Positions 33,863 to 37,880 of a DNA stretch of 43,686 bases are shown here, in pieces (within the stretch, counting starts at the first letter, position 1; every line of letters begins with the position of its first letter). Position numbers and translations under genes: made by a program. The notes beneath the pieces are model-generated. The model had not been told where the DNA came from, did not search any database, and saw only the letters and a list, made by a program, of their open reading frames with translations. This stretch comes from Perkinsus chesapeaki (taxonomy: Eukaryota > Perkinsozoa > Perkinsida > Perkinsidae): contig JAAPAO010000281.1 of assembly GCA_013115145.1 (NCBI GenBank), positions 1 through 43,686 on the forward strand, given 5' to 3'.

Positions 33863-34947
33863 ATGTCATCCGTTCGGAAGGCGACTGATCATCATCGTCA
33901 ACGGCATAACAGACGCGAGATGAGCTCCAACGAAGCAGTTTCTCGCCTCCTGTCTAAGGTGAGCTCTGCCGTTCAGCTGCTCCCCGGGAGTCCTCTAGCG
34001 GGCCATTCTCCACCGAAAGTGACGTCGTCGGGGCCTCTTTCGGCTCACCCGGCTGCGTCGACGGCGAGGCACCATAGGCGTTGTGTTCTTACATGGGTAA
34101 GCACTGTGTCAGGTTCTACGGCACAAGGCTGTGGACATGGGCCTAGCCATCGATAGGGCTGGTTACGTAAAAGTGAACGACCTGCTAGTCCATCCGCGGT
34201 TCAAAAGCTTAAAGGTGTCTGAAGATGATATAAAGCAGTGTGTAGCAACCAATGCCAAACAACGGTAGGGGCAGCCTTATAACCCAGTTGATGCCTTTTA
34301 CAGTTGTAGCCAGATTCGCCTTAACCACAGCGCCTGATGGTGAACTTCTCATACGGGCAACACAGGGGCACTCATTCCCCTCGGCCATAGTAGATCCGAC
34401 GCTCATCATGTAAGCTCATGTCGGTTACGTGCTTGAACGTAACTGTTTGATAGGACTCCAGTGAGCATGGCATGCCTCCCCCCACTGCTGGTGCATGGTA
34501 CCTATTTTAGTCACTGGAAGGCCATCCTCGCCAGTGGTGGTTTAAAGCCTATGAGCGTGGGTATCGGTTGTCTTTCTTACCGCACTTCCATCTTTCAGAG
34601 ACAACATATCCATCTAGTCGATGCATCAGAGACACTGACAGGAGTTGTCAGCGGCTTGAGGAAGTCGGCGGAGATCTACGTAAGTTCCAACGGGCCGGCT
34701 GCCTTTGAGGCTGAGCATTTGCCGTAGGTGTATGTGGATGCCAAGAGGGCTGCCGAGGATCATATACCTTTTCTGAGAAGCGCTAATAATGTGTATCTTA
34801 CGTCGGGCAAGGTATGATTCTTATTAGGTCACCTAGGAAACAACTATCTCTGTTCAGGACGGTCTGCTCGGCACACAGTACTTCAAGAAAGTTGTTGATG
34901 TTAAGGAGAGTGCCGAGGCTAAGAAGGAGTATCTTCTAAACTACTGA
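33863..34947 (+). CDS. TPT1: tRNA 2'-phosphotransferase (TPT1/TRPT1/KptA)
   Basis: This enzyme removes the splice-junction 2'-phosphate from ligated tRNA with NAD+ as acceptor. Seven exons join in frame: 33863-33958, 34113-34264, 34314-34409, 34454-34556, 34599-34679, 34728-34811, 34858-34947. Motifs in order: SRLLSK-VLRHKA (the catalytic Arg-His of the LRH motif), DRAGYVKVNDLLVHPRF, VATNAKQR-FALT, LIRATQGHS (second Arg and His), LLVHGTYFSHWKAILASGGL, RQHIHLVDA, SGLRKSAEIYVYVDAKRA, PFLRSANNVYLTSG and DGLLGTQYFKKV. All expected active-site blocks are present, so the enzyme looks functional. The last five introns are 42-49 nt; the first is 154 nt. It lies 199 bp upstream of PRORP, which acts in the same pathway. 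Confidence 0.95.
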
Positions 34948-35146
34948 AACAAGCTGGTTAACTTCTACATGGGATAGCTGCTCGAGCTCGCCGCGGAAGT
35001 GATGGTCTGATGTCTTTCGGAGGCCTTTGGATTACTATATGTGAACTGCATGTATCATTCAGCGTTGCGTTAATTTGCCTTCTCGCATGTACGCTGCGAT
35101 AGCGGGGTTTAACTTAGTTGCTTGGAGTCTCCTGTTGACGTAGCAA

Positions 35147-37880
35147 ATGGTCCACCAGAAGAACAGTAAGGAGGTTGCATTGAAGAGGCAGCTAAAGGCC
35201 TTTCAGACGAAGATGTGAGGCATCTTCCCCAGCTTCGCTCTATTATAACTGTATAGGTACACGTCAGCTCGAGAGCATGACATACTGGGAGCATTCAAAA
35301 CATACGAGGAGATCATAGAAAATGACGAGTTCGTCAAAGCCGGCCTCACTAAAGGGGTAATGTCACAACAGTAGCAGCCGTGGCTCACATCACCCGTGTC
35401 TACATAGAGATATGTATGCTCATCGATCATGGGTTCCCGGTGTTCAGATGCATGGTAGAATCCTCACTGTGGCGGCTAGTGATGTGAACCTTGAAGCCGG
35501 ATGTCCGTCAAAGGACATCGCTACTGCTAAGGAAATTCTCAGGTTGTCTCAAGAAGTCCTCGCGAAATGTACGCAAGTCATGTTTAAGCGTCCGATTCTT
35601 ATCGATCATTAGCAGGCTCAGAGCGGCAAGAGAATATCCTCACGAGCATGGTTAAGTTGGCAGTTGCTGCCGGTGAAATCGACTTGGCCCTCGAATACCA
35701 CAAGGAATGTGCGTTCCGCCGCTGCTCCTCATCCACAGGCCCGAGTTGCCAGGTTTAACCAACTTCCAGCCTCGTCTGAGAAGCTACGTCCCCCTCTTGC
35801 AGCTTTACTCATCGCCGCAATATCAAGACTTTGATGTATGACCCGCGCGCAGTATCCCAGGTATCTTTCTTCAGGCGGTTATGAACTTAGTTGCCGACCT
35901 TGAAGGCCGGGGGTTCACTCTAGGCGATGCAGAGTTGTCGTACATTCTCCGCTGTTGTCCTGCTGGAAAAGGTATTCACGTCGCACGGGAGCTGATTTTG
36001 CATGCTCGTACTTAGGTTTTGATTTTCTTGCCAACAAAGTCGCCAATACCATCGACGTAGTGACAGATTCGCGATTGACAGACTCCATACAAACCATGGG
36101 TGACCGAGACTCGGTAACGTGACTGTCGAGTAACTATAGCCATGTATGGCACATCGTTTACTCAGAACATCGAAGTTCAATCCACCGAAATCGCGCCCGA
36201 TGGCACATGTACCAAGACTGGCATAAAACTGCAGTCGATTGATATAACCGATGATGAGCTTCATGAGCTTTCGGAGTTGACCGAGCGCCTGGCTACTCAA
36301 AACTTGTCTGAGGAGCAACAAGAGAAGTTCCGCGACCTCCAGCGTTATCTTGGTGAGGAAAGTCAGACATACTCTGTGGGATACGGACCTGGTTATGTAG
36401 ATGATCAATCGAGGCCGGCCACCATTATCGTTGACGCGGCGAATATCGGTCATATGAACCAGAACTATGCAGATGGCTTCTTCCAGCATTCACAAATTGA
36501 TGACGTTGCGGAGCATTTCATTAAGGAAGGGAAAAAGGTAGCATCTTGTGAGCGTTTCGAATGAACTCCATTGAATGTGAACAGGTTCTTGTCATACTAC
36601 ACAGTAAATGGCTCGAACCTGGTCTGGACCTGACCGTCGGCACGGGACCCCTCGCCAAAAAGAGACGGAAAATTGCCAGCAAACACAAGCAAAAGCTCGC
36701 TAGACTAGACGGTAACCCGCATGTTAGGATAGGATACATGTATAGGCTGTCTACTTGCTAAATGATGGCAAGCTTAAAGGGAATGTGAATCCGTGGGAAA
36801 GCGATTCACAGAATACGCGGACAAGATTTAAAAATGTGACAGCCGTGGGGTTCGAACCCACGCCCTTTCGGAATGGCGCCTAAAGCCACCGCCTTAGACC
36901 ACTCGGCCAGACTGTCGGTGAAAATATTGATTTGCTTTCTGAGGGGTACGGACGTCGGACACAGTTACCGCCCTTTACCTCTGAAACACGCTTCTTATTA
37001 GCCTTCCTTCCTTCTATAAGGTACATTCGCGCCTGAACTTGATCCTGAGCTCACTTCTTCGTCTGCCCCAGCCAGCGCATCTAACCCGGAAAGTCCTGAT
37101 GAAGCTGGATCATCCAAGCCACAGAGCTCGCATGAGAGCGAAGAAGACGATATTGAAGAGCTCAGCGAAGAGAAGCGCAATAAGTACAATGAGCTCATTA
37201 AGAAGTAGTCCTTGATTTGTGGCAATCGTAACTGGCACGAGTTTCGGGTAGGTATAATGAGAAGTGGGCAAAGCAGAGTGATGATAAAGGAAGCCTTTTC
37301 GAGCTTTACAGAGTACGTTATCACAGTCACATTAGCATTCCTCATGTACATTTGGTAGGTGCCACCGCGTGCGAATGATGACTGGTTTTGGATGTACGCT
37401 GCTATCCGCTGCGAAGAACAAGCACGTGAGTTGGCCAAAAAGGAGGGGAAGGAGCCCGAACGGGTGTTCGTAATCTCCAATGACCTCATGAGAGATCACT
37501 TCTGGCGAATGATGGTAGTTTTACATCATAGAATCCGTTACATTCCTTGATATTCCCGAAGGTTCCCCAATCCTTCCTGCGGTGGCGCGAGCGACACGTT
37601 TGCCGAGTCAAGATCACGTTCCCAGAAGAAGACGTCGATAAGAAAGAGTAAGTGGGAGGGAAGGAGGCTATCACTGCCGCCTTTGCAGGTACACCTTTGA
37701 GATGCCTTCCGATTATTCAACGAGAGTTCAACATCAGGGACCTTACTGTCACGTAATAGGTCCAGTTATATGGTGAGCGACACGCTTTCCACGTAGGTAC
37801 CCATTACACGTCCAATAGACGACCAACAACCGGAGACCGAGACTAAATGGCTAGTTGTCATTGATAAATCGAAAGACTAG
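35147..37880 (+). CDS. PRORP: Proteinaceous RNase P (PRORP)
   Basis: PRORP cleaves 5' leaders from precursor tRNAs without an RNA subunit. N-terminal PPR-type helices are seen (REHDILGAFKTYEEII, NILTSMVKLAVAAGEIDLAL), then PRLRSYVPLLQLY. The later exons are 36140-36537, 36585-36711, 37021-37204, 37252-37312, 37359-37514, 37562-37647, 37689-37752 and 37797-37880. The NYN nuclease has all four catalytic aspartates: TIIVDAANIG, the pair in RANDDWFWMYAA, and SNDLMRDH. FLRWRERH and PYCHVPIT complete the fold. The zinc site is altered: CTKTG replaces CxxC, and WLVV replaces WLC. A Ser/Glu-rich insert of about 61 residues (37021-37204) and a basic KKRRK stretch before it are unusual; the latter suggests nuclear localisation. 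The 309-nt intron 36712-37020 contains an antisense tRNA gene. Exons between 35.36 and 35.76 kb are unresolved. Confidence 0.94.
36830..36834 (-). terminator. Pol III oligo-T terminator of tRNA-Leu
   Basis: On the minus strand TTTTT follows the tRNA 3' end by two bases, the usual RNA polymerase III stop signal. It lies well inside the PRORP intron. Confidence 0.85.
36837..36916 (-). tRNA. tRNA-Leu, anticodon UAG
   Basis: A full cloverleaf can be drawn on the minus strand. The acceptor GACAGTC pairs with GGCTGTC. The D arm begins TGGCCGAGTGG, which is also the A box. The anticodon stem GTGGC/GCCAT holds loop TTTAGGC with anticodon TAG, decoding CUA. A class II long variable arm (TCCGAAAGGGC) and a T arm GTGGG-TTCGAAC-CCCAC that carries the B box follow. 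The discriminator is A, as expected for Leu. No intron is present and CCA is not encoded. The gene lies inside PRORP intron 36712-37020 on the opposite strand. Confidence 0.97.

What the first reader, a model, noticed from the sequence alone, without database searches (positions are those of the whole stretch)
36712..37020. A tRNA-Leu gene sits antisense inside an intron of the tRNA-processing enzyme PRORP
The PRORP intron 36712-37020 joins exons ...KLARLD-G and G-TFAPEL in phase, is 309 nt long where nearly all others are 41-51 nt, and holds a complete tRNA-Leu(UAG) with its own boxes and terminator on the opposite strand. The host enzyme is expected to process the nested tRNA's 5' leader. 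Pol III transcription would run against PRORP pre-mRNA and the two RNAs would be complementary. This offers a possible feedback between tRNA output and RNase P level. I know of no described PRORP gene with this arrangement, but I could not search.
Basis: partly seen in the sequence, partly recalled or inferred. Interest (0 to 1): 0.88.

Follow-up and report, generated by a model that had tools for sequence, protein, structure and literature searches.

The report
tRNA gene inside RNase P intron
In the mollusc parasite Perkinsus chesapeaki, an intact leucine tRNA gene sits back to front inside an intron of the gene for a protein enzyme that trims tRNAs; the layout is real, but other tRNA genes in this genome also sit inside introns, so it looks like ordinary nesting rather than a proven feedback circuit.

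Summary
The window is a Perkinsus chesapeaki contig. A complete PRORP gene (35147-37880 +, 15 introns) has a 309-nt intron (36712-37020) holding an intact tRNA-Leu(UAG) on the minus strand (36837-36916), with promoter boxes and a T5 terminator. NCBI's protein for the locus and its P. marinus and P. olseni relatives run straight across the splice junction. Against two other UAG copies the tRNA shows a compensatory base-pair change, so it is probably functional.

PRORP plausibly processes this tRNA: one PRORP locus was found, no credible RNase P RNA although MRP RNA was, and mitochondria encode no tRNAs. But nesting looks common: a home-made gene model puts 37 of 94 examined tRNA genes in introns (20 antisense, 17 sense; nine firm), against 23 of 44 random decoys. 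The Pol III unit appears to lie wholly in the intron, so it should not pair with mature PRORP mRNA. Conservation in other species could not be tested.

A second case turned up: tRNA-Ile(UAU), antisense, in an intron of the TFIIIC subunit Tau95 gene. Mammalian Polr3e-MIR is the closest studied precedent. Feedback is possible but unshown.

The parts
35147..37880 (+). PRORP (protein-only RNase P) gene, 16 exons, 581 aa, ATG to TAG
   Evidence: splice model, identical to P0001; Pfam PF16953 and PF17177
36712..37020 (+). 309-nt host intron, phase 1, GTAACC...TATAAG
   Evidence: junction continuous in P0001, P0002, P0003
36837..36916 (-). tRNA-Leu(UAG), 80 nt with discriminator A, no intron
36899..36909 (-). 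A box TGGCCGAGTGG (consensus recalled)
   Evidence: read from the sequence
36848..36858 (-). B box GGTTCGAACCC (consensus recalled)
   Evidence: read from the sequence
36880..36882 (-). anticodon UAG
   Evidence: ARAGORN position 35
36830..36834 (-). T5 run, Pol III terminator-like, two bases after the discriminator base
36585..36711 (+). PRORP exon before the nested intron; encodes the basic stretch KKRRKIASKHKQK
37021..37204 (+). PRORP exon after the nested intron
33863..34947 (+). upstream gene, Tpt1/KptA tRNA 2'-phosphotransferase (limits predicted)
   Evidence: gene model; PF01885 E 8.3e-34 on a frame read through introns; Tpt1 then PRORP domains also in P. olseni P0004

Best explanation
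A functional, autonomous Pol III tRNA-Leu(UAG) gene is nested antisense in an intron of the Pol II-transcribed PRORP gene. The intron is about 260 nt longer than its neighbours and holds the whole Pol III unit clear of both splice sites; host splicing discards it, so both genes can be expressed. Shown: the sequence anatomy, continuity of the protein across the junction in three species, a compensatory change in the tRNA, and other intron-nested tRNAs in both orientations in the genome. Inferred: that both genes are expressed, and that PRORP (probably this cell's nuclear RNase P) trims this tRNA as it would any nuclear tRNA. Any effect of the tRNA on PRORP is most likely a small cis effect on Pol II elongation by collision or roadblock, not RNA pairing, and may be none. 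The pairing of this tRNA with this host is most likely one of the many nestings that chance provides.
For: tRNA 54.5 bits, E 4e-9. Junction agrees with NCBI's protein and with relatives in two species. Against the other two UAG copies found there are three differences, and two of them form one acceptor pair (alignment columns 7 and 73: T-A in both copies, C-G here). Of the 19 aligned genes 17 have T in column 7, and only this one and L045 have the C-G pair. A T5 run lies within the intron. Nesting: 20 of 58, 5 of 12 (its C764 row left out as a repeat of L021) and 12 of 24 tRNAs, 37 of 94 in all, 20 antisense and 17 sense, in 34 predicted host genes. Nine are firm because a Pfam domain or an orthologous protein spans the junction: PRORP, Tau95 (L021), SNF2 domain (L003), helicase OB domain (L012), DEAD helicase (L067), BRCT (L068), PP2C (L085), globin (L087), Vps53 (L088); 6 antisense, 3 sense. 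Random 80-nt decoys fall in predicted introns in 23 of 44, so tRNAs show no excess in introns.
Against: No RNA data: neither the splice nor the mature tRNA is shown by experiment. The survey rests on a gene model that I wrote and trained on this window. The decoy rate also shows that the model readily bridges any masked stretch inside a gene, so an intron call by itself is weak; 28 of the 37 have no independent support, and the host proteins of 11 of the 37 were not put to Pfam. The tRNAs are not a random sample. A second tRNA-pathway host (Tau95) is a hint, too weak to test, that the pairing might not be pure chance.
Confidence: 0.8

Rival explanations
1. Regulatory nesting: Pol III transcription of the antisense tRNA slows Pol II in PRORP (head-on collision or TFIIIB roadblock), so high tRNA output lowers the level of the enzyme, a local feedback of the Polr3e-MIR type.
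For: Antisense layout in the intron of a tRNA-maturation gene; the same layout in the Tau95 (TFIIIC) gene. In mouse cells, deleting an antisense Pol III unit in Polr3e removes a Pol II pause and raises expression, protein effect about 1.5-fold (PMC5358760, passages). In C. elegans opposite-strand intronic tRNAs show higher Pol III occupancy than same-strand ones (PMC4999229, passages).
Against: Predicted nested tRNAs occur in both orientations (20 to 17) and mostly in hosts with no known link to tRNA among those identified. PMC5358760 finds few intragenic Pol III units that cause Pol II accumulation in human cells. No expression data here; the sign is odd for a feedback, as more tRNA would mean less processing enzyme; conservation untested.
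Confidence: 0.12
2. The nested tRNA is a decaying copy without function that happens to lie in a long intron.
For: Related tRNA genes are dispersed: 19 places, this one included, on 18 contigs. The intron matches other places only over the tRNA and up to about 19 nt beside it. RNAfold alone does not return the cloverleaf as the best structure.
Against: Cloverleaf scored by two programs that know tRNAs; boxes and a terminator-like run present; the substitutions include a compensatory pair.
Confidence: 0.06
3. The tRNA is made from the host transcript, like the intron-encoded RNase P RNA of Drosophila.
For: Intron location.
Against: It is on the opposite strand and has promoter boxes and a terminator-like run of its own; the Drosophila RNA is on the host strand and lacks Pol III signals (PMC4287351, passages).
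Confidence: 0.01
4. The intron call is wrong and the 309 nt separate two genes.
For: The intron is far longer than the median of 46 nt; the acceptor ends in AAG, as does one other of the 15.
Against: The protein is continuous across the junction in NCBI's P. chesapeaki protein and in P. marinus and P. olseni; the PRORP nuclease motifs lie on both sides.
Confidence: 0.01

Closest known systems
Polr3e-MIR pair of mammals (Yeganeh et al. 2017, PMC5358760; abstract and passages read)
   Same: A Pol III unit antisense inside an intron of a gene of the Pol III/tRNA pathway.
   Different: There a SINE in the first intron of a Pol III subunit gene, conserved in mammals and shown to reduce host expression. 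Here a tRNA gene in the tenth of 15 introns of a processing enzyme, with conservation and effect untested. The Tau95 case (L021) is the closer parallel.
Intronic tRNA genes of Caenorhabditis (PMC4999229; abstract and passages read)
   Same: tRNA genes in introns of protein genes, on either strand; 44% of 609 tRNA genes.
   Different: There host-tRNA pairing is reported as conserved between species and the host promoter matters; here neither could be tested. No tRNA-processing host is named in the passages I read.
RNase P RNA gene in an intron of ATPsynC in Drosophila (PMC4287351; passages read)
   Same: A tRNA-processing component and an intron-nested RNA gene.
   Different: Roles reversed: there the RNA of RNase P is nested on the host strand and made by Pol II; here the RNase P gene is the host and the nested gene is an antisense tRNA gene.
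PRORP, protein-only RNase P (PMC10941002; passages read)
   Same: Domain make-up (PPR region plus nuclease) and active-site motifs.
   Different: About 110 residues where plant PRORP2 has about 20, between the first Asp motif and NDDW; the nested intron falls in that insert.

Membership tests
Antisense intron-nested tRNA gene | Complete tRNA gene with internal promoter boxes and terminator | tested here: met
   box consensus recalled
Antisense intron-nested tRNA gene | Lies wholly in a spliced intron of a protein gene on the other strand | tested here: met
   by protein continuity, not RNA
Antisense intron-nested tRNA gene | Transcribed by Pol III to a mature tRNA | not testable with these tools
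   no RNA data
PRORP | PPR region plus PRORP domain above curated cut-offs | tested here: met
   PF16953 76.7 bits (39.1), PF17177 52.8 bits (27)
PRORP | Catalytic Asp motifs (VDxANIG, NDDWxW, NDxMRDH) | tested here: met
   aligned with solved plant PRORP2; roles of these residues recalled
Polr3e-MIR type interference | Antisense Pol III unit in an intron of a Pol III/tRNA pathway gene | tested here: met
   PRORP and Tau95, by sequence only
Polr3e-MIR type interference | Arrangement conserved among relatives | not testable with these tools
   only proteins of other Perkinsus species came up
Polr3e-MIR type interference | Pol II pauses at the unit and host expression rises when it is removed | not testable with these tools
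   needs an experiment
Host-transcribed intronic RNA (Drosophila RNase P RNA type) | Same strand as host, no Pol III signals | tested here: not met

The most novel reading that the evidence does not exclude
Perkinsus has placed antisense tRNA genes inside several genes of its own tRNA pathway (Tau95 of TFIIIC, PRORP), so that Pol III activity throttles in cis both the factor that starts tRNA transcription and the enzyme that trims the product: a distributed, RNA-independent governor of tRNA supply built from the tRNA genes themselves.
Probability: 0.07. Interest if true: 0.8.

Novelty: new member of a known kind. Interest (0 to 1): 0.4.

Why it matters
It adds a protist example, with two pathway-related hosts, to the known cases of Pol III genes nested in genes of the tRNA pathway, and points to a compact-intron genome in which about 4 in 10 examined tRNA genes appear to sit in introns. 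Since predicted introns have a median of 46 nt here, each nested tRNA marks its intron as an outlier. Whether tRNA-host pairings persist between species, and whether tRNA-pathway hosts are over-represented, can then be counted directly once other Perkinsus genomes are compared.

Tried and rejected
RNase P RNA: an Rfam hit (RF00009, 25.0 bits, cut-off 28, C621; E 2.1e-4 for the genome, 8.6e-5) at first suggested an RNP RNase P beside PRORP. I judged it spurious: 194 of its 322 bases lie in predicted coding exons of a same-strand gene that has a ketopantoate hydroxymethyltransferase match further upstream, and the nearest T4 run is some 55 nt past its end. Two results go the other way: its E-value is not that of a typical chance hit, and its strand folds better than shuffles (z -2.54). 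MRP RNA is found at 79.4 bits. Rpp30 is found but is shared with MRP (recalled). POP1_N gave nothing and no control rang; the Pfam PRORP profile likewise missed the gene in this very window, so blank answers for intron-rich genes say little.

Alternative genetic code: apparent in-frame stops around PRORP (e.g. at 37205) turned out to be short introns. Orientation bias: 14 of 20 antisense in the first batch vanished with more loci (20 of 37). The other UAG copy L033 in an SMC-like gene is not secure (delta 1.4, SMC match below cut-off, junction outside it). Target-site duplication: longest repeat between the flanks is 6 nt, typical of shuffles. Flank homology: nothing beyond the tRNA and up to about 19 nt beside it. 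Tau95: my first model missed an exon; orthologues corrected the intron from 214 to 127 nt. A look for tRNAs in aminoacyl-tRNA synthetase genes was not possible, as no loci were cut out. Literature: in the listings no title or abstract start names a PRORP gene as host of a tRNA; I read passages of five papers only, and the library is open-access only.

Full report
What was checked. The window is contig C203 of a genome of 35.4 Mb in 884 contigs. A protein search with the spliced PRORP gives Perkinsus chesapeaki FOL47_005011 on a contig of exactly 43,686 bases, plus three relatives from P. marinus and P. olseni. So the source is P. chesapeaki.

Gene and intron. PRORP runs from 35147 to 37880 (+) in 16 exons; my curated join is identical to NCBI's protein P0001. 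Solved plant PRORP2 aligns at the motifs VD-ANIG, NDDW-W and ND-MRDH (same query). The 309-nt intron lies between the first and the later motifs, so its retention (TAA at 36759) would remove the later ones. Thirteen of 15 introns are 39-52 nt and one is 91. In the window my gene model predicts 195 introns, median 46 nt, seven of 143 nt or more. Rfam finds only this one RNA in the window at curated thresholds.

The tRNA. It is a tRNA-Leu(UAG) of 80 nt with a long variable arm, on the minus strand. A DNA search with it finds 19 places, itself included, three of them with anticodon UAG. The nested copy differs from the other two UAG copies at three positions, and two of these change one acceptor pair from T-A to C-G. 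A T5 run starts two bases after the discriminator base. L032, another UAG copy, shows no T4 in the 58 nt printed after it; L033 has one about 14 nt on. The T5 run lies 118 nt from the donor and the mature 5' end 104 nt from the acceptor (coordinates). RNAfold by itself returns another fold as best, which is common for unmodified tRNA sequences (recalled).

Is nesting unusual here? I wrote a two-strand gene model with codon, splice and intron-length scores, seeded with this gene and retrained on the window. With tRNAs masked it puts 20 of 58, 5 of 12 and 12 of 24 tRNAs in introns: 37 of 94, PRORP included, 20 antisense and 17 sense, in 34 predicted host genes. Random decoys: 23 of 44. The decoys measure how much of the DNA the model counts as inside genes, exons included; they show no excess of tRNAs in introns, and also that an intron call alone is weak. 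Nine cases are firm because a domain or an orthologous protein spans the junction; the other 28 are model calls only, and the hosts of 11 of the 37 were not put to Pfam. The tRNAs are the best of 63 Rfam candidates scored out of 3361, the relatives of the nested tRNA and their neighbours, so the fraction is indicative. In C. elegans the figure is 44% of 609, not different from chance (PMC4999229, passages). As a kind, then, this is ordinary.

Is PRORP the enzyme for this tRNA? One PRORP locus was found with the protein itself as query. MRP RNA is found clearly (79.4 bits). The one RNase P RNA hit is below the curated cut-off and 194 of its 322 bases lie in predicted coding exons, though its E-value of 2.1e-4 is not that of a typical chance hit. 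Four Perkinsus mitochondrial genomes showed no tRNA genes (PMC9550989, passages). A review states that PRORP and RNP RNase P have not been found in one compartment (PMC10941002, passages). The Pfam PPR match begins at residue 17, leaving little room for a targeting peptide, and a basic KKRRK stretch is shared by the three species. All this fits a nuclear PRORP that trims nuclear tRNAs, including this one. It is inference; a divergent RNase P RNA or an assembly gap could upset it.

A second case. tRNA-Ile(UAU) on C764 lies antisense in a 127-nt intron (L021 1068-1194) of the gene for Tau95, a TFIIIC subunit. The junction ICRPQP|YNFEGNAY is continuous in the annotated P. chesapeaki, P. olseni and P. 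marinus proteins. Retention gives an immediate stop, and a T5 run again ends the unit inside the intron. So among the 33 predicted host genes other than PRORP, one is known to be a tRNA-pathway gene; most of the rest have no firm name, so more could be hidden. If about 2% of genes serve the tRNA pathway (my estimate, not a call), at least one among 33 would be expected about half the time. This is a lead, not enrichment.

Mechanism. The most likely reading is two independent genes sharing DNA. An antisense Pol III unit can slow Pol II in cis: in mouse Polr3e the effect on protein was about 1.5-fold, and in the reporter it needed antisense orientation (PMC5358760, passages). Here such an effect is possible. 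RNA pairing with mature PRORP mRNA is unlikely, because the unit appears to lie wholly in the intron.

Limits.

Noticed in passing
L021 1068-1194 (contig C764): tRNA-Ile(UAU) nested antisense in a 127-nt intron of the Tau95 (TFIIIC subunit) gene; protein continuous across the junction in three Perkinsus species.
   Followed up: yes
window 33863-37880: A Tpt1/KptA tRNA 2'-phosphotransferase gene lies directly upstream of PRORP on the same strand; P. olseni P0004 carries both domain sets in one annotated protein, so the order is shared.
   Followed up: partly
L087 643-738 and 993-1285: A globin-like gene appears to hold two tRNAs in two introns: tRNA-Arg antisense (junction inside the domain) and tRNA-Lys sense (junction at the domain's edge).
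   Followed up: partly
L043 1501-1580: A tRNA with the tRNA-Leu body but anticodon AUA and a mismatch in the anticodon stem; ARAGORN names it tRNA-Tyr; perhaps a pseudogene.
   Followed up: no
L077 1501-1717 (contig C223) and L075: Strong RNase MRP RNA (79.4 bits) but no credible RNase P RNA in the held assembly, which would fit PRORP having replaced the RNP enzyme.
   Followed up: partly
G000 contig C440 (L007-L009, L017, L019): A cluster of at least five tRNA-Arg genes on both strands within about 4 kb.
   Followed up: no
P0002: The P. marinus PRORP orthologue is named 'multidrug resistance pump, putative' in the source, which does not fit its PRORP domains.
   Followed up: no
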